A stretch of DNA of 64,000 nucleotides from Leuconostoc citreum. GTDB taxonomy: Bacteria; Bacillota; Bacilli; Lactobacillales; Lactobacillaceae. The notes beneath the pieces are model-generated. The model made no database searches, was not told the DNA's origin, and saw nothing but the letters and a program-made list of their open reading frames with translations. Position numbers and translations under genes: made by a program. Of the stretch, positions 25,458 through 60,770 are shown piece after piece (position 1 is the stretch's first letter; each line of letters begins with the position of its first letter). The stretch spans positions 1 through 64,000 of the forward strand of contig NZ_PUFH01000004.1 of assembly GCF_004354555.1 (NCBI RefSeq). The letters are read 5' to 3'.

Positions 25458-25468
25458 TTAGGCATTTT

Positions 25469-25510
25469 AAAAACGTTTGTTACTCTTAAAAAAGAGTGAC
25501 ACGTTTTTAA
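25469..25510 (+). terminator. Terminator splitting the spc operon after rplE
   Basis: AAAAACGT...ACTCTT / AAGAGT...ACGTTTTT, about 16 bp with a small bulge and a T-run. It sits where rpsN would be expected. Confidence 0.85.
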
Positions 25511-25514
25511 CTGT

Positions 25515-25537
25515 TATAGACCAAAATAGTCTATAAT
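25515..25537 (+). promoter_or_regulatory. rpsH promoter with overlapping palindrome
   Basis: TATAAT at 25532-25537 without a good -35. TATAGAC (25515-25521) and GTCTATA (25529-25535) form a perfect 7-bp inverted repeat covering the -10. Restarts transcription of the rest of the spc operon. Confidence 0.6.
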
Positions 25538-25595
25538 AGTTAAGAGCGTGTCATTTCATTATGTCCGTTCAAAAATAAAAGGAGGATATCGATAG

Positions 25596-52642: not shown

Positions 52643-52734
52643 GTGCCTATGCGGGAACAAAAATAGTCTAAAAGACCGTTTTGTAACCAAATTGTAATAA
52701 CAAAACGCAGCAAAAAACAAACGAGGTGATAAAT

Positions 52735-55700
52735 GTGGCAGGACATTTAGTAAAGTACGGTAAGCACCGTACCCGTCGTTCATATGCTAGCATCAAAGAA
52801 GTACTTGATGTGCCGAATTTGATTGAGATTCAAACGGCATCTTACCAATGGTTCTTAGATGAAGGTATCAAAGAAATGTTTGGTGACATCATGCCAATCG
52901 ATGACTTCCAAGGGACATTGTCTTTGGAATATGTTGATTATCAATTGATGGAACCAAAGTATAATATTGATGAGGCGCGTGAACACGACGCCAATTATTC
53001 AGCACCATTACATGTGACTTTACGCTTGACGAACCATGAAACCGGTGAAATTAAGTCTCAGGATGTATTCTTTGGTGAGTTCCCATTAATGACAGAACAA
53101 GGAACGTTCATTATTAATGGTGCGGAACGTGTTATTGTATCCCAATTAGTACGTTCTCCGGGTATCTACTATAACCAAGAAAATGATAAAAATGGTCGCC
53201 CACGTTATGGAACAACAGTTATTCCTAACCGTGGTGCTTGGTTGGAATACGAAACAGATGCTAAGGGCATTGCTAACGTCCGTATTGATCGTACACGTAA
53301 GCTGTTGATGACAGAACTAGTACGTGCATTAGGCTTTGGATCAGATTCTGACATCATTGATATTTTCTCTGACCAATATGATGCTTTGAACATGACGCTT
53401 GAAAAAGATGTGCATAAAGACATGTCGGATTCACGTGTTGAGGAAGCCTTGAAAGATGTTTACGAACGTCTGCGTCCAGGAGAACCCAAGACAGCTGATT
53501 CATCACGTGCTTTATTGGTCGCACGCTTCTTTGACCCAAAGCGTTATGATTTAGCTTCAGTTGGACGTTATAAGATTAACAAGAAGTTGTCATTAAAAAC
53601 ACGCTTGCTTAATCAAACATTAGCTGAAACATTAGCTGATCCGGATTCTGGTGAAGTCATTGCTGAAAAAGGCACATTAGTTGATAAGACTGTGATGTCT
53701 AAATTGAGTCCGTTCTTGGATCGTGAAGACTTCAAGACAACAACTTATACACCATCAGGAGACGCAGTACTTGAAGAACCTGTAACACTCCAAAAAATTA
53801 AAATTGAATCACCTGAGAATCCTGAAAAAACATTACTATTAATTGGTAATGGACACATTGATGAAAATGACCGGACAGTGCGTCCAGCAGATATCTTAGC
53901 TGGTATGAACTACTTCTTGAATTTACAAGAAGGCATTGGAAACGTGGATGATATTGATCATCTTGGTAACCGTCGTATTCGCTCGGTTGGTGAGCTACTA
54001 CAAAATCAATTCCGTATTGGTTTGACACGTATGGAACGTGTTGTGCGTGAACGTATGTCAATTCAAGATGCAAATACAGTTACACCACAACAATTAATCA
54101 ACATTCGACCTGTTGTGGCAGCTGTTAAAGAATTCTTTGGTTCATCGCAACTTTCACAGTTCATGGACCAAACAAATCCATTGGGCGAAATGAACCACAA
54201 GCGTCGTCTTTCAGCCCTTGGACCTGGTGGTTTGACACGTGATCGTGCTGGTGTTGAAGTGCGAGATGTGCACTATACACACTATGGTCGAATTGATCCA
54301 ATCGAAACACCAGAAGGTCCAAACATTGGTTTGATTAACTCATTAGCTACTTATGGTCGCATTAACAAGTATGGCTTCATTGAGACACCTTATCGTCGTG
54401 TTGATTGGACAACCCATATGGTTACTGACAAAATCGACTATTTAACTGCTGATGAAGAAGATAACTATATTGTCGCACAGGCGAACTCACCGTTGAACGA
54501 TGATGGTAGTTTCGTTCACGATACAGTTATGGCACGTTTTGGTGAAGAAAACATCGAAACACCAATAGATCGCATTGATTACATGGACGTTTCGCCTAAG
54601 CAAGTTGTTTCTGTTGGTACAGCAGCGATTCCTTTCTTAGAAAATGATGATTCTAACCGTGCCTTGATGGGTGCCAACATGCAACGTCAGGCCGTACCTT
54701 TGCTTGACCCACATGCACCACTTGTTGGTACAGGTATCGAATATAAGGCTGCCCACGATTCTGGTGTTGCCATGATTTCTCGTGCTGCTGGTGTTGTTGA
54801 ATATGTTGATGGGCGTCAAATTCGTGTGCGTCGTGAAGATGGTCAACTTGATACGTACGAACTAATGAAGTTCCGCCGCTCAAACGGTGGTAAAAATTAT
54901 AACCAAAAGCCAATTGTCCATGAAGGTGAGCATGTTGAAGCCGATGAAGTTTTGGCTGATGGCCCATCAATGGAAAAAGGTGAACTTGCTTTGGGACAAA
55001 ACCCATTGATTGCCTTTATGACTTGGCAGGGTTATAACTTCGAAGATGCCATTGTTTTGAACGAGCGCCTAGTTCGTGAAGATGTTTATACATCAATTCA
55101 TATTGAAGAATATGATTCAGAGGCCCGCGATACAAAACTTGGACCGGAAGAAATGACTCGCGAAATTCCTAATACTGGCGAAGACCAATTGAAGGATTTG
55201 GATGCTGATGGCATCATTCGTGTGGGAGCAGAAGTTCATGATGGCGACATCTTGGTAGGTAAGGTGACACCAAAGGGTGTGACTGAATTATCAGCTGAAG
55301 AACGTTTGTTACATGCTATCTTTGGTGAAAAGGCACGTGAAGTACGTGATACATCTTTGCGTGTTCCTCATGGTGGTGGCGGCGTTGTGCAAAATGTCCG
55401 TATCTATACGCCTGAAAACGGGGATGAATTAGCACCAGGTGTTAACATGATGGTTCGTGTTTATATTGCACAAAAACGTAAGATTCAAGTTGGTGATAAG
55501 ATGGCCGGCCGTCATGGAAACAAGGGAACAGTCTCTGTTGTTGTTCCTGAAGAAGATATGCCATATATGCCAGATGGTACACCAATTGATATCTTGTTGT
55601 CACCCATGGGTGTGCCTTCACGTATGAACATTGGTCAAGTTCTTGAATTGCATCTTGGTTTTGCGGCTAAGAAGCTTGGTATTCATGTTGCCTCACCTGT

Positions 55701-56349
55701 CTTTGACGGTGCAAGTGATGATGAAATTGAAGCAGCTTTACGCGAAGCTGGGTTGCCACAAGACGGTAAGTCAGTTGTCTATGACGGCCGTACTGGTGAA
55801 GCCTTTGATAAACGTGTCGGCGTTGGTGTCATGCACTATATGAAGCTTGCCCACATGGTCGATGATAAGATTCATGCGCGTTCAATCGGACCATATTCAT
55901 TAGTAACGCAACAACCTTTGGGTGGTAAAGCACAATTTGGTGGTCAGCGTTTCGGTGAAATGGAAGTTTGGGCCCTTGAGGCTTATGGCGCTGCATACAC
56001 TTTGCAAGAAATTTTGACTTATAAGTCAGATGATGTTGCTGGTCGTGTTAAGGTTTATGAATCAATCATCAAGGGTGAACCAATTCCACGTCCAGGTGTG
56101 CCTGAATCATTCCGTGTGCTTGTAAAAGAATTGCAAGCACTTGGCTTGGATATGCAAGTCTTGGATAATGCAGGTGATGAAGTTGAATTACGTCAAATGG
56201 ATGAAGATGATTCAATTTTGCCAGTTGATGCACTTGAAAAGTTGGTTCGTTCTAACCCTGATTTGTTAAATAAAGAAGATGAAGAAGTTGCTGCAGCATT
56301 CTCTAAGGTAGAATCTCGCGATAATACTGAAGTAACCGACGAAAATTAA
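52735..56349 (+). CDS. rpoB: RNA polymerase subunit beta
   Basis: Catalytic core subunit of RNA polymerase. 1204 aa from GTG 52735, with GAGG 7 bases upstream and the family-typical start [16 protein letters not shown]. Contains the rifampicin region ([20 protein letters not shown], about residue 470), the GRHGNKG active-site segment and the C-terminal clamp contact. The rifampicin cluster differs from the usual Firmicute form at three positions (LGEMN instead of LAELT). Followed by a long hairpin and rpoC. Confidence 0.98.
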
Positions 56350-56377
56350 AATATAAATACAATGTGTCATTGTCATG

Positions 56378-56437
56378 GCACGTTTGTTATAAGTTATTTT
56401 TAATCGCGTGATTAAGAGTAACTTATAGCAAACGTGC
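56378..56437 (+). repeat. 28-bp hairpin between rpoB and rpoC
   Basis: Positions 56378-56405 pair without interruption with 56410-56437 around the tetraloop GCGT. There are 28 pairs, of which three are G-U. No T-tract follows, so it is not a terminator. Likely a double-stranded RNA processing site in the rpoBC message (inference). Confidence 0.85.
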
Positions 56438-56490
56438 AGTGATTGCGAGACATGTTGATATCATAAATAATGAAAGGTAACAGCAAATAG

Positions 56491-59400
56491 ATGGCAATCG
56501 ATGTTAACAAGTTCGAAAGCATGCAAATCGGTTTGGCTTCTCCTGATAAGATCCGTTCATGGTCTTATGGTGAAGTAAAGAAGCCTGAAACGATTAACTA
56601 TCGAACACTTAAGCCAGAAAAAGATGGCCTGTTTGATGAACGCATCTTCGGACCTACAAAGGATTATGAATGCGCCTGCGGTAAATATAAGCGAATCCGA
56701 TACAAGGGAATCGTTTGTGATCGCTGTGGCGTTGAAGTCACATCATCAAAAGTTCGTCGTGAACGTATGGGGCACATCGAATTAGCTGCACCTGTTACAC
56801 ATATTTGGTACTTCAAAGGTATCCCGTCACGTATGGGACTTGTCTTAGACATGTCACCACGCTCACTTGAAGAAATTATTTACTTTGCGTCATATGTTGT
56901 CATTGAACCTGGTGATGCACCAGTTGAAAAGAAGCAATTGATGACAGAACGTGAGTACCGTGAACTGAAGCGCGAATATGGTGCTAGTTTTAAGGCTGGC
57001 ATGGGTGCTGAAGCAATTAAAGATTTGTTGGCAAGTGTTGATTTAGCTGCCGAAGCAGATCAGTTGAAGCGCGAATTACAAGAAGCAACAGGTCAAAAAC
57101 GTGTACGTGCCGTACGTCGTTTAGATATTATCGAAGCCTTCTTGCAGTCAGATAATAAGCCGCAATGGATGGTTATGGATGTGATTCCAGTTATTCCACC
57201 AGACTTGCGTCCAATGGTTCAATTAGAGGGTGGTCGTTTCGCCACATCTGATTTGAATGATTTGTATCGTCGTGTCATCAACCGTAACAATCGTTTGAAG
57301 CGTTTGCTTGATTTGAATGCCCCAGGCATTATCGTGCAAAATGAAAAGCGTATGTTGCAAGAAGCCGTTGATGCATTAATTGATAATGGTCGTCGTGGCC
57401 GTCCTGTAGCTGGACCAGGTAATCGACCATTGAAGTCGCTATCTCACATGTTAAAGGGTAAGCAAGGTCGCTTCCGTCAAAACTTGTTGGGTAAGCGTGT
57501 TGATTACTCAGGTCGTTCAGTTATTGACGTTGGACCATTCTTAAAAATGAACCAAATGGGATTGCCACGTCCAATGGCAATTGAATTGTTCCGTCCGTTC
57601 ATCATGAAAGAATTGACCACACGTAAGTTGGCTGGCAATGTTAAGTCAGCTAAGCGTAAGATTGACAAAGCTGATGAAGATGTGATGGATGTATTGGAAG
57701 ACGTTATCAAAGAACACCCAGTTCTTTTGAACCGCGCACCTACACTGCATCGTTTGGGAATCCAAGCTTTTGAGCCAGTATTGGTTTCAGGTAAGGCGAT
57801 GCGTTTGCATCCACTGGTTACCGAAGCCTATAACGCCGATTTTGATGGCGATCAGATGGCTATTCACGTACCATTATCTGATGAAGCACAAGCTGAAGCA
57901 CGTTTGCTGATGCTTGCTGCAGGTCATATTTTGGCACCTAAAGATGGAAAGCCAATTGTGGCACCATCTCAGGATATGGTTATTGGAAACTATTACTTAA
58001 CGACCGAAGAAGCTGGTCGTGAAGGTGAAGGTATGATTTTCTCTTCAGTTGAAGAAGCAAAAATTGCCTTTGCAAGTAAGGTAGTCCATTACCACACACG
58101 TATTGGTATCCAGACGTCTTCATTCCCAGAAGCAAAACCATTTACTGATGAACAACGTTCAAAGATTATGGTGACGTCTGTTGGTAAATTGATTTTTAAT
58201 GAAATTTTGCCAGTTGATTTTCCATATATTAATGAACCATCTGAAGATAACTTCAAGGGTATTAGTGATCAATTCTTCATCGAAGCCGGTGAAGATATTC
58301 ATGACTATTTGGCTGACACAGCAGTTATTGGCGCTTTCAAAAAAGGCTTCTTATCAGATGTTATTGCTGAAGTCTATAAGCGTTACAAGGTAACCGAAAC
58401 ATCATTGCTTTTGGATCGTATGAAAGATCTTGGTTATGAAAAGTCAACTGAATCTGGTTTGACTGTTTCGATGAATGATGTGACAGAATTGACTGAAAAG
58501 CCAGCTATTCTGGAAGATGCACACAAGCAAGTTGCAACAGTGACCAAGCAGTTCCGTCGTGGTTTGATTACTGATAGTGAGCGTTATCAACGTGTTACTG
58601 AAATCTGGACAAAAGCCAAAGATGTTATCCAAGATAAGTTGATTGCGTCGTTTGAACCAACTAACCCAATCTTCATGATGCAAGATTCAGGTGCGCGTGG
58701 TAACATTTCGAACTTCGTTCAATTAGCTGGTATGCGTGGCTTGATGGCTGGTCCTGGTGGTAAGATTATTGAATTGCCGGTTACTGCCAACTTCCGTGAA
58801 GGCTTAACTGTGATGGAAATGTTTATTTCAACTCACGGTGCGCGTAAGGGAATGTCAGATACGGCCTTGAAGACTGCCAACTCTGGTTACTTGACACGTC
58901 GATTAGTTGATGTTGCGCAAGACGTTATCGTTCGTGAATGGAATAATAACGCTGACCGTGGTGTTGCTGTTAAAGCAATCATGGATGGTACATCTGTTGT
59001 TGAACCATTGTACGATCGTATCTTGGGTCGTTACGCAATGAAATCAGTCTTTAATCCAGAAACGGGTGATAAGTTAGTTTCACGTAACGAAATGATTGAT
59101 GAAGATGTTGCTAAAGCAATCGTTGCAGCTGGCATTGAAGAAGTAACCATTCGTTCCGTCTTTACTTCAACAACAGAACACGGTGTGTCAGTGTTAGACT
59201 ACGGTCGCAACTTGGCTACTGGTGAAGAAGTTGAAGTTGGTGAAGCAGTTGGAACCGTTGCAGCACAGTCAATCGGTGAACCAGGTACACAATTGACCAT
59301 GCGTAACTTCCATACAGGTGGTGTTGCTGGTGGAAACGATATTACCCAAGGTTTGCCTCGTGTGCAAGAAATTGTTGAAGCACGTATTCCTAAGGGACGC

Positions 59401-60153
59401 GCCGAAATTTCTGAAGTAACGGGTACAGTGGTTGCCATCGAAGAAAATCCAGCTGAACGTACAAAGGCTGTAACGATTGAAGGCGAAACTGATACACGTA
59501 CGTACACACTACCATTGGCAGCGCGTATGCGTTTTGCTGAAGGGGATGACATTCAACGTGGTGATGCCATTAATGAAGGACCAATTGATCCTAAGGAATT
59601 GCTTGCGGTCACTGATACATTAACGACAGAATCATACATGTTGACGGAAATCCAAAAGGTTTACCGTTTGCAAGGTATTGAAGTGTCTGATAAGCATATT
59701 GAAGTTATGATTCGTCAAATGTTGCGTAAGGTACGCGTCATGGATCCAGGTGAAACTAGTCTTTTGCCAGGTATGTTAATGGATATTGCCGATTTCCAAC
59801 GAGCCAACGAACCAGCTTTGTTTGATGGCTTAGTACCTGCAACAGCACGTCCTGTTTTGCTTGGTATTACGAAAGCTGCTTTGGAAACGAATTCATTCTT
59901 GTCTGCTGCATCATTCCAAGAAACAACGCGTGTCTTGACTGATGCTGCTATCAGAGGAAAGAACGATCCATTGGTAGGTTTGAAAGAAAACGTTATTATT
60001 GGTAAGATTATTCCTGCTGGAACAGGTATGGCAGAGTATCGTAAAATTAAGAGTAAAGTCGTTGGGGAAGTTGTTGCGCAACCAGAAGTTGAGCAAGAAC
60101 CAACGCCTGATATTCCTAAGTTAGATGATGTTGCTAAGTCTTTTGAAGAATAG
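56491..60153 (+). CDS. rpoC: RNA polymerase subunit beta prime
   Basis: Completes the active site with beta. 1220 aa; N-terminal zinc ribbon (CACGKYK ... CDRCGVE), the Mg-binding NADFDGD, bridge-helix region ([14 protein letters not shown] nearby) and trigger loop. AAAGG ribosome binding site 11 bases upstream is moderate. The C-terminus is slightly acidic. Confidence 0.98.
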
Positions 60154-60181: not shown

Positions 60182-60220
60182 AAAAAACCAGTCACTGTTA
60201 TATGTGGCTGGTTTTTTTTT
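60182..60220 (+). terminator. Terminator of rpoBC
   Basis: AAAAAACCAG-T-CAC / GTG-G-CTGGTTTTTT with an 8-nt loop and nine T. Confidence 0.92.
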
Positions 60221-60231
60221 AACAATAATCT

Positions 60232-60264
60232 AATTAGGCCAAAATATGTCCAATTAGGCCAAAA
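60232..60264 (+). repeat. 13-bp direct repeat upstream of mrnC
   Basis: AATTAGGCCAAAA occurs at 60232-60244 and 60252-60264, exactly 20 bp apart (two helical turns) on the same face of DNA. Confidence 0.7.
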
Positions 60265-60325
60265 AGATGGGCAACAAATGTTTTATTCGCTAAACTAAAA
60301 TAGTTCTGCAGAACATTTATCAAAC

Positions 60326-60356
60326 TTGTACGCGTTGTGAAAATCTCGCGTATAAT
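60326..60356 (+). promoter_or_regulatory. mrnC promoter
   Basis: TATAAT at 60351-60356 with a distant TTGTAC (19-bp spacing). The predicted start point falls at or next to the mrnC ATG. Confidence 0.5.
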
Positions 60357-60362
60357 ATAATT

Positions 60363-60770
60363 ATGCATAATTTACAATACGAACAAATGAATGGGTTGTC
60401 GTTGGCTTATATCGGTGATGCAATATACGAACTTGAAGTGCGCCAACATTTATTATCATTAGGAATAACTAAAGTGAATGCGTTACAGAAACAAAGTAAG
60501 TTCTACGTTTCTGCCAAAGCACACGCGGCTTTATTTAATCATATGACAACAGATAACATACTGACTGAACAAGAACTTGTGTATTTTAAGCGCGGACGTA
60601 ATGCCAAATCACATACAAAGGCAAAAAATACTGATGTGGTAACGTATCGCATTTCAACGGGTGTAGAAGCCTTGTTCGGTTATCTTTATTTATCTGAACA
60701 ACATGAACGCATTAGTCAATTGATGCGCTGGATTTTTGAACAAGTTGAGACAGGGAGAACAAGTGAATGA
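60363..60770 (+). CDS. mrnC: Mini-ribonuclease 3
   Basis: RNase III-like enzyme without an RNA-binding domain that matures 23S rRNA. 135 aa with LAYIGDAIYELEVR, the KRGRNAKS segment and STGVEALFGYLYL. The ATG lies 6 bases after a perfect -10 and has no ribosome binding site, so the mRNA may be leaderless. Starts the mrnC-rlmB-sigma operon; the cysS gene that precedes mrnC in B. subtilis is absent. Confidence 0.94.
   Translation: MHNLQYEQMNGLSLAYIGDAIYELEVRQHLLSLGITKVNALQKQSKFYVSAKAHAALFNHMTTDNILTEQELVYFKRGRNAKSHTKAKNTDVVTYRISTGVEALFGYLYLSEQHERISQLMRWIFEQVETGRTSE

What the first reader, a model, noticed from the sequence alone, without database searches (positions are those of the whole stretch)
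56378..56437. Uninterrupted 28-bp hairpin between rpoB and rpoC
The 60-base stretch folds into 28 consecutive pairs (three of them G-U) around a GCGT tetraloop. It sits in the 141-bp gap between two genes made in equal amounts, with no U-tract. A stem this long is a natural RNase III substrate and could uncouple rpoB and rpoC mRNA decay or translation. RNase III-type sites are known upstream of rpoB in E. coli; I know of none described at this spot.
Basis: partly seen in the sequence, partly recalled or inferred. Interest (0 to 1): 0.65.

Follow-up and report, generated by a model that had tools for sequence, protein, structure and literature searches.

The report
Conserved RNA hairpin between rpoB and rpoC
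A long RNA hairpin lies between the two big RNA polymerase genes of this Leuconostoc bacterium; related species have kept its shape while its letters changed, so it probably does something in the messenger RNA, most likely as a cutting site that separates the two messages.

Summary
56378-56437 forms 28 uninterrupted pairs around GCGT. The stem really runs on to about 56362-56453, 39-42 pairs. Of 18 same-strand gaps of 70-330 nt in the window it folds best (z -9.0).

The genus is Leuconostoc. A homologous hairpin sits at rpoB-rpoC in 13 of 19 held Leuconostoc genomes, which form one clade. The other 6 have a 19-23 nt gap and no hairpin. Pairing is kept through two-sided changes (8 of 26 pairs, 96.7% of cells paired). 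G.U mismatches far exceed A.C (66:11; 41:1), which points to selection on the mRNA strand. A 15-bp core with an invariant U.G pair is 92% identical, the stem tip 60%.

Long rpoB-rpoC gaps across Lactobacillales often fold stably too (70 of 84 genomes). That is weaker evidence, because long gaps of this window also often fold (12 of 18).

Cleavage by an RNase III-type enzyme is the best explanation but untested. The E. coli RNase III consensus is not met. No Rfam family reaches its threshold.

The parts
52726..56349 (+). rpoB, RNA polymerase beta subunit
   Evidence: ORF, translation, NCBIfam rpoB
56350..56490 (+). rpoB-rpoC gap, 141 nt, largely filled by the stem
56362..56453 (+). full stem-loop (outer variable stem, core, apical stem)
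   Evidence: the repeat finder arms 56362-56405 / 56410-56453; folds
56378..56437 (+). 28 uninterrupted pairs around a tetraloop, the finding as given
56379..56393 (+). left arm of the near-invariant 15-bp core
   Evidence: alignment A2 columns 1-15; 92% mean identity over the core arms
56422..56436 (+). right arm of the core
   Evidence: alignment A2 columns 53-67
56387..56387 (+). U of the invariant U.G pair (partner G at 56428), 12 of 12 sequences
   Evidence: pair 9-59
56428..56428 (+). G of the invariant U.G pair
   Evidence: pair 9-59
56406..56409 (+). apical loop; loop and tip vary between species
56472..56477 (+). Shine-Dalgarno-like GAAAGG of rpoC, outside the stem; conserved
   Evidence: sequence; alignment
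56491..60153 (+). rpoC, RNA polymerase beta' subunit
   Evidence: ORF, translation, NCBIfam rpoC

Best explanation
This is a cis-acting structured RNA element of the rpoBC mRNA. When the gap is transcribed, the RNA between the rpoB stop and the rpoC ribosome site folds into a helix of about 40 bp. SHOWN by comparison: the helix is kept by selection on the mRNA strand in one clade of Leuconostoc, with a near-invariant 15-bp core inside variable outer and apical helices. INFERRED: the helix is bound and cut by a double-strand-specific RNase III-type enzyme (RNase III, or a sequence-choosy relative such as Mini-III). That splits the message into an rpoB piece and an rpoC piece whose decay and translation can then be set separately. 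The stem sits 0-12 nt after the rpoB stop and 6-18 nt before the rpoC ribosome site, so it also breaks the short 19-23 nt spacing seen in species without it. The enzyme, the cut sites and the effect on protein ratio are not shown.
For: The orthologous hairpin is in 13 of 19 genomes and one clade. Covariation: 96.7% of 306 cells paired, 8 of 26 pairs changed on both sides, against a shuffle mean of 4.4 and 0 of 500 shuffles as high; the weaker count of pair types is reached by 9 of 500; slid structures pair 36-48% of cells. G.U 66 vs A.C 11 cells under Watson-Crick-only arm alignment of 12 sequences (with 469 Watson-Crick, 55 other mismatch and 31 indel cells); 41 vs 1 in core plus tip; p 1.3e-8 to 0.005 against composition, relatedness not corrected. 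The 12 gaps fold with z -5.7 to -9.9, and the reverse complement is weaker in 12 of 12. The covariance model scores the mRNA strand above its complement in 13 of 13 genomes, partly by construction, since it was built on that strand from these sequences. No U-run, no terminator site listed in the gap. Two RNase III-domain proteins are encoded in 19 of 19 genomes. B. subtilis RNase III cuts paired sites in intramolecular duplexes of 10-36 bp (PMC11780869, section 24 read).
Against: No RNA-end or cleavage data exist here. The E. coli RNase III consensus is not matched above random (best 9-12 of 16 specified positions; random 140-mers average 10.8, 95th percentile 12.0), and the top windows differ between species (four per sequence listed). 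RNase III normally needs little sequence, so it does not by itself explain a 15-bp near-invariant core. The Mini-III-like gene has its own promoter-like region behind a terminator-like stem in the loci read (by eye), so its neighbourhood to rpoC is no operon link. Six Leuconostoc species do without the element. RNase III target papers in B. subtilis and S. aureus do not name rpoB or rpoC in their main text (word finds).
Confidence: 0.5

Rival explanations
1. Binding site without cutting: a protein (RNA polymerase itself, an assembly factor or another regulator) reads the invariant core with its U.G pair in double-stranded RNA and represses or times rpoC translation, an autoregulatory switch.
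For: The core is 92% identical while the tip is 60% and rpoC fourfold sites 77%; the U.G pair is 12 of 12. A sequence-reading partner explains this better than RNase III alone.
Against: In the folds the stem leaves the ribosome site of rpoC outside. No second place in 19 genomes scores near the rpoB-rpoC element (next best 31.4 bits against 60-82), so there is no sign of a regulon. No candidate protein was identified.
Confidence: 0.2
2. Stability barrier: the stem is not cut but blocks 3'-5' or 5'-3' exonucleases after cleavage elsewhere, so it protects the rpoB 3' end or the rpoC 5' end.
For: A more stable stem between two reporter genes raised expression of the upstream gene in E. coli when an RNase E site was present (PMC10667835, passages). 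Stable folds at this junction in other families fit a pure stability role.
Against: Does not need the invariant core or the U.G pair.
Confidence: 0.15
3. Translational spacer: the stem separates rpoB termination from rpoC initiation, or brings the rpoB stop and the rpoC ribosome site together across its foot, tuning reinitiation.
For: The stem fills the gap: 0-12 nt from the stop to the stem and 6-18 nt from the stem to the Shine-Dalgarno-like site in 12 sequences. The 6 Leuconostoc species without it have 19-23 nt between genes.
Against: Any stable stem would do; the core sequence would be free to change.
Confidence: 0.1
4. DNA-level palindrome (protein-binding site, cruciform, or a remnant of a mobile inverted repeat), with arms kept alike by template switching rather than by RNA function.
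For: Long inverted repeats are typical of mobile elements, and template switching can mimic compensatory change (recalled knowledge, not tested).
Against: G.U far exceeds A.C, which a DNA palindrome does not predict. The span of the two core arms varies from 53 to 67 nt in 12 sequences. It is single-copy in its own genome, and no match was found in the plasmid, phage and viral collections.
Confidence: 0.04

Closest known systems
RNA processing in the E. coli rplJL-rpoBC transcription unit (Barry, Squires and Squires 1980; only its title seen, in the reference list of PMC5371410; that the site is an RNase III site between rplL and rpoB is recalled)
   Same: A processing site inside an operon that makes RNA polymerase subunits.
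   Different: There it lies upstream of rpoB, here between rpoB and rpoC; no sequence relation was tested; cleavage is not shown here.
Mini-III RNase substrates (B. subtilis 23S precursor stem; ACC^U or generally WSSW; PMC4357697 and PMC5141509, passages)
   Same: Sequence-preferring cleavage of double-stranded RNA; a small PF00636 gene lies about 4 kb past the junction, just after rpoC, in 19 of 19 Leuconostoc genomes (coordinates).
   Different: The conserved core holds WSSW tetranucleotides (ACGU, AGCA; by eye) but such four-letter matches are expected by chance; core pieces are absent from the 16S flanks, 16S and 23S start searched.
Intercistronic stem-loops of selective RNA processing and stabilisation in E. 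coli (PMC10667835, passages)
   Same: Stable stem between co-transcribed genes that can set the ratio of their messages.
   Different: Those work as exonuclease stops with RNase E cuts; no invariant sequence core is described in the passages seen.
Lacto-rpoB RNA (listed as a 5' UTR element in a passage of PMC6431027; the rest recalled)
   Same: Structured RNA of the rpoB operon in lactic acid bacteria.
   Different: It is a 5' UTR element; no Rfam gathering-level match lies upstream of this window's rpoB or in the rpoB-rpoC gap.

Membership tests
RNase III processing stem | Extended RNA duplex of at least about 20 bp on the transcribed strand | tested here: met
   39-42 pairs, + strand selection
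RNase III processing stem | Match to the weak E. coli consensus (proximal and distal boxes) | tested here: not met
   Best 9-12 of 16 positions, random mean 10.8; the consensus is weak in any case (PMC5141509, passages)
RNase III processing stem | Enzyme present in the organism | tested here: met
   PF00636 in 19 of 19 Leuconostoc genomes, two matches each
RNase III processing stem | Cleavage with 2-nt 3' overhang, lost in an rnc mutant | not testable with these tools
   needs RNA-end data
Mini-III substrate | Preferred ACCU / WSSW at the cut | tested here: inconclusive
   WSSW tetranucleotides are present in the core by eye (alignment) but are uninformative; preference from PMC4357697 and PMC5141509 (passages)
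Intrinsic terminator | GC-rich stem followed by a run of U | tested here: not met
   no U-run, no terminator-like site listed in the gap
Known Rfam family | Score at or above the gathering threshold | tested here: not met
   none in the gap; at E up to 10 in 56300-56520, 40 sub-threshold hits, mostly microRNA hairpin shapes
Mobile or repeated palindromic element | Several dispersed copies or presence in mobile DNA | tested here: not met
   one full copy in its own genome, three short weak matches besides; none found in plasmids, phages, viral contigs

The most novel reading that the evidence does not exclude
The rpoB-rpoC junction is a place where double-stranded RNA elements have arisen again and again in Bacilli to uncouple the two polymerase subunits, and in Leuconostoc the element has become sequence-specific: its invariant 15-bp core with a fixed U.G pair is read by a dedicated double-strand RNA reader (Mini-III or an unknown protein) that adjusts RpoB to RpoC.
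Probability: 0.2. Interest if true: 0.75.

Novelty: new member of a known kind. Interest (0 to 1): 0.5.

Why it matters
rpoB and rpoC products are needed in equal amounts and are usually assumed to be made from one continuous message. A conserved, covarying RNA element exactly between them, gained in one clade and absent in its sister clade, gives a natural comparison for asking whether and why bacteria split this message. The wider survey suggests that stable stems recur at this junction in other Bacilli, so the question may be general.

Tried and rejected
Intrinsic terminator: no U-run and no hit in the gap. Repeat family or mobile element: no second full copy in its own genome, no match in plasmids, phages or viral contigs. 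Copy of an rRNA processing stem: six core fragments are absent from the rRNA stretch searched; the far end of that stretch read N, so the 23S ends were then looked at by eye in a second stretch, with no resemblance beyond a few letters. Rfam: only sub-threshold matches. E. coli RNase III consensus: not met. Mini-III autoregulation in the same operon: weakened. In the window and in the 8 other Leuconostoc loci read, a stem with a T-run follows rpoC (by eye; the scan does not list the window's one) and the Mini-III-like gene has its own promoter-like region. A ninth locus, of another genus, had no such gene after rpoC in the 2.4 kb read. Other sites in the genus by covariance model: only weak hits; the one above 30 bits is the rplE-rpsH hairpin of one species; six of the other weak hits (18-23 bits) were fetched and folded with their flanks and looked like chance or lay in or beside other genes; the remaining ones were not inspected. 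Four weak hits in other genera of the family (26-34 bits) were not inspected. A promoter-like reading of the core (TGnTATAAG) was dropped by eye, because those letters vary between species.

Survey caveats: the rpoB coding control (19 of 79 with z below -2) is not an intergenic control. Of the window's 18 same-strand gaps, this one included, 12 fold with z below -2 (terminators and leaders not removed), so the survey trend is suggestive only. Genomes in the survey are related and some gaps identical; by genus, 26 of 31 with median gap of at least 70 nt have median z below -2. In one search, identical gaps, second loci of the same genome, a 460-nt gap and three loci with too little upstream sequence were dropped (82 distinct long gaps, 79 used). 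G058 and G371 stayed unresolved; G037 failed at its first locus and was resolved with its second, the 460-nt gap. Of the 148 genomes, 120 were used and 28 left out by hand before folding, mostly close relatives; 4 further genomes came. Outside the order, 40 of the 63 class genomes with a match were fetched. The two-sided changes in other genera have no shuffle control. That the stems of other families are unrelated in sequence to the Leuconostoc one was judged by eye; the covariance model was run on the family, not on the order.

Literature: searches found no paper; only chloroplast papers; some searches gave listings from which I opened only those cited, so an unread paper may mention the junction. 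Papers were seen as passages, except section 24 of PMC11780869, which was read.

Full report
What is there. The 60 bases at 56378-56437 pair without interruption over 28 positions, three of them U.G, around a GCGT loop. The gap between the rpoB stop (56349) and the rpoC start (56491) is 141 nt (names by NCBIfam). The arms continue outward to 56362-56453, giving 39 pairs in the fold of the gap and 42 in the wider fold. No T-run follows, and the scan lists no terminator there. The fold beats all 200 dinucleotide shuffles. Among 18 same-strand gaps of 70-330 nt in the window it has the lowest z (-9.0); 12 of the 18, this one included, are below -2.

Relatives. Named hits put the genome in Leuconostoc (the species of the window was not established). 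A pattern of the core with a free tip matched 9 stretches, all Leuconostoc, in a collection of one genome for each of 84,980 species (the window's own genome may be left out there). A covariance model built from 12 distinct sequences (a thirteenth is identical to one of them) finds the element in 13 of 19 held Leuconostoc genomes. In each it is at the rpoB-rpoC place, and one genome has a further weak hit (31.4 against 60-82 bits) elsewhere. The 6 others have gaps of 19 or 23 nt with no stem (genomes G001, G013-G017). Eleven loci of other genera (L022, L025-L034) have 12-55 nt gaps and no such stem. On a tree of rpoB and rpoC ends the 13 bearers are one clade (support 97/98), so one gain suffices.

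RNA, not DNA. In the core plus tip alignment, 96.7% of 306 cells pair and 8 of 26 pairs show two-sided change; shuffles average 4.4 and none of 500 reaches 8, while slid structures pair only 36-48%. With arms aligned by Watson-Crick matches only, mismatches are G.U in 66 cells, A.C in 11 and others in 55, with 31 indels. In core plus tip, G.U is 41 and A.C 1, in 13 and 1 columns. A DNA palindrome or an RNA from the other strand does not predict this; base composition predicts a G.U share of 0.55 (binomial p 1.3e-8 for cells and 0.003 for columns; cells of related species are not independent). The model also scores the mRNA strand higher in 13 of 13 genomes, but it was built on that strand.

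Anatomy. The core CACGUUUGUUAUAAG / CUUAUAGCAAACGUG is 92% identical on average, against 60% for the tip and 77% for fourfold sites in the first 100 codons of rpoC. One U.G pair (56387.56428) is present in 12 of 12 sequences. In 11 of 12 the core ends at a purine-G mismatch; the window's sequence has a U-A pair there, which is why its stem looks so perfect (read from the alignment). The stem starts 0-12 nt after the stop and ends 6-18 nt before the GAAAGG of rpoC in the 12 sequences.

Mechanism. A duplex this long in an mRNA is a natural RNase III-type substrate. B. subtilis RNase III cuts duplexes of 10-36 bp, with sites 2 bp apart on opposite strands (PMC11780869, section 24 read; its main text has no rpoB or rpoC by word find). 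Two RNase III-domain proteins are encoded in 19 of 19 genomes. But the E. coli consensus is not met above random, and the best windows differ between species, so RNase III alone does not explain the near-invariant core. Mini-III prefers certain tetranucleotides (PMC4357697, PMC5141509, passages). Its likely gene (60363-60770; PF00636, 135 aa, followed by rlmB, not named by NCBIfam) follows rpoC in the window and in the 8 other Leuconostoc loci read, and by coordinates in 19 of 19 genomes. However, a stem with a T-run and a separate promoter-like region lie between them, judged by eye. I therefore give RNase III-type cutting 0.5, a non-cutting reader 0.2, an exonuclease barrier 0.15, a translation spacer 0.1 and a DNA role 0.04.

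Beyond Leuconostoc. I folded rpoB-rpoC gaps of 124 Lactobacillales genomes (122 resolved, the window's own included). Of 84 with gaps of at least 70 nt, 70 have z below -2; of 38 shorter ones, 1 does; 8 families are involved; by genus, 26 of 31 with long gaps. Against equal lengths of rpoB coding sequence upstream, 70 of 79 distinct gaps and 19 of 79 controls are below -2, and the mRNA strand folds better than its complement (mean z -3.5 against -2.2). In the five genera that the script printed, pairs with two-sided change were 9 of 36, 8 of 23, 5 of 37, 2 of 22 and 2 of 15, without a shuffle control. In 40 other Bacilli genomes, 8 of 15 long gaps and none of 25 shorter ones are below -2. No Rfam gathering-level match was found in 20 of the surveyed loci. 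Since long gaps in this window also fold well, recurrence at this junction is a lead, not a result.

Novelty. No Rfam family reached its threshold, and none of the papers I opened describes this element in what I saw of them; searches are, most of their listed papers were not opened, and the library lacks most subscription papers. I file it as a new member of a known kind: an intercistronic structured RNA, likely a processing stem, unusual for its invariant core.

Noticed in passing
window 25458-25595: Between rplE and rpsH (the 138-nt gap leaves no room for rpsN) lies another 28-pair hairpin (25494-25556). The gap is highly conserved in 19 of 19 Leuconostoc genomes, and its middle segment can pair either with the upstream or with the downstream segment (by eye), like a two-state switch. 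No Rfam family reaches its threshold.
   Followed up: partly
window 60220-60362: Upstream of the Mini-III-like gene: repeated AATTAGGCCAAAA-type boxes, a GTTCTGCAGAAC palindrome (window and 6 of 8 other Leuconostoc loci, by eye), and a promoter-like TATAAT within a few bases of the ATG; possibly a leaderless message.
   Followed up: no
rpoC leaders of other Bacilli, e.g. L091, L098, L119: In many of the other loci printed, the rpoC ribosome site reads GGGAGG...CCCC or GGAGGGAACCCC and could fold on itself; Leuconostoc has GAAAGG without this.
   Followed up: no
G094 against G035 (loci L112, L106): Two genomes of one genus in the same family: one has a 137-nt rpoB-rpoC gap with a 41-pair stem that looks unrelated in sequence, the other 56 nt without one; fast gain or loss.
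   Followed up: no
G000 contig C10, 66105-67500 (loci L048, L049): 16S rRNA is matched there by two adjacent partial pieces (model 9-873 and 875-1387) instead of one; cause not examined.
   Followed up: no
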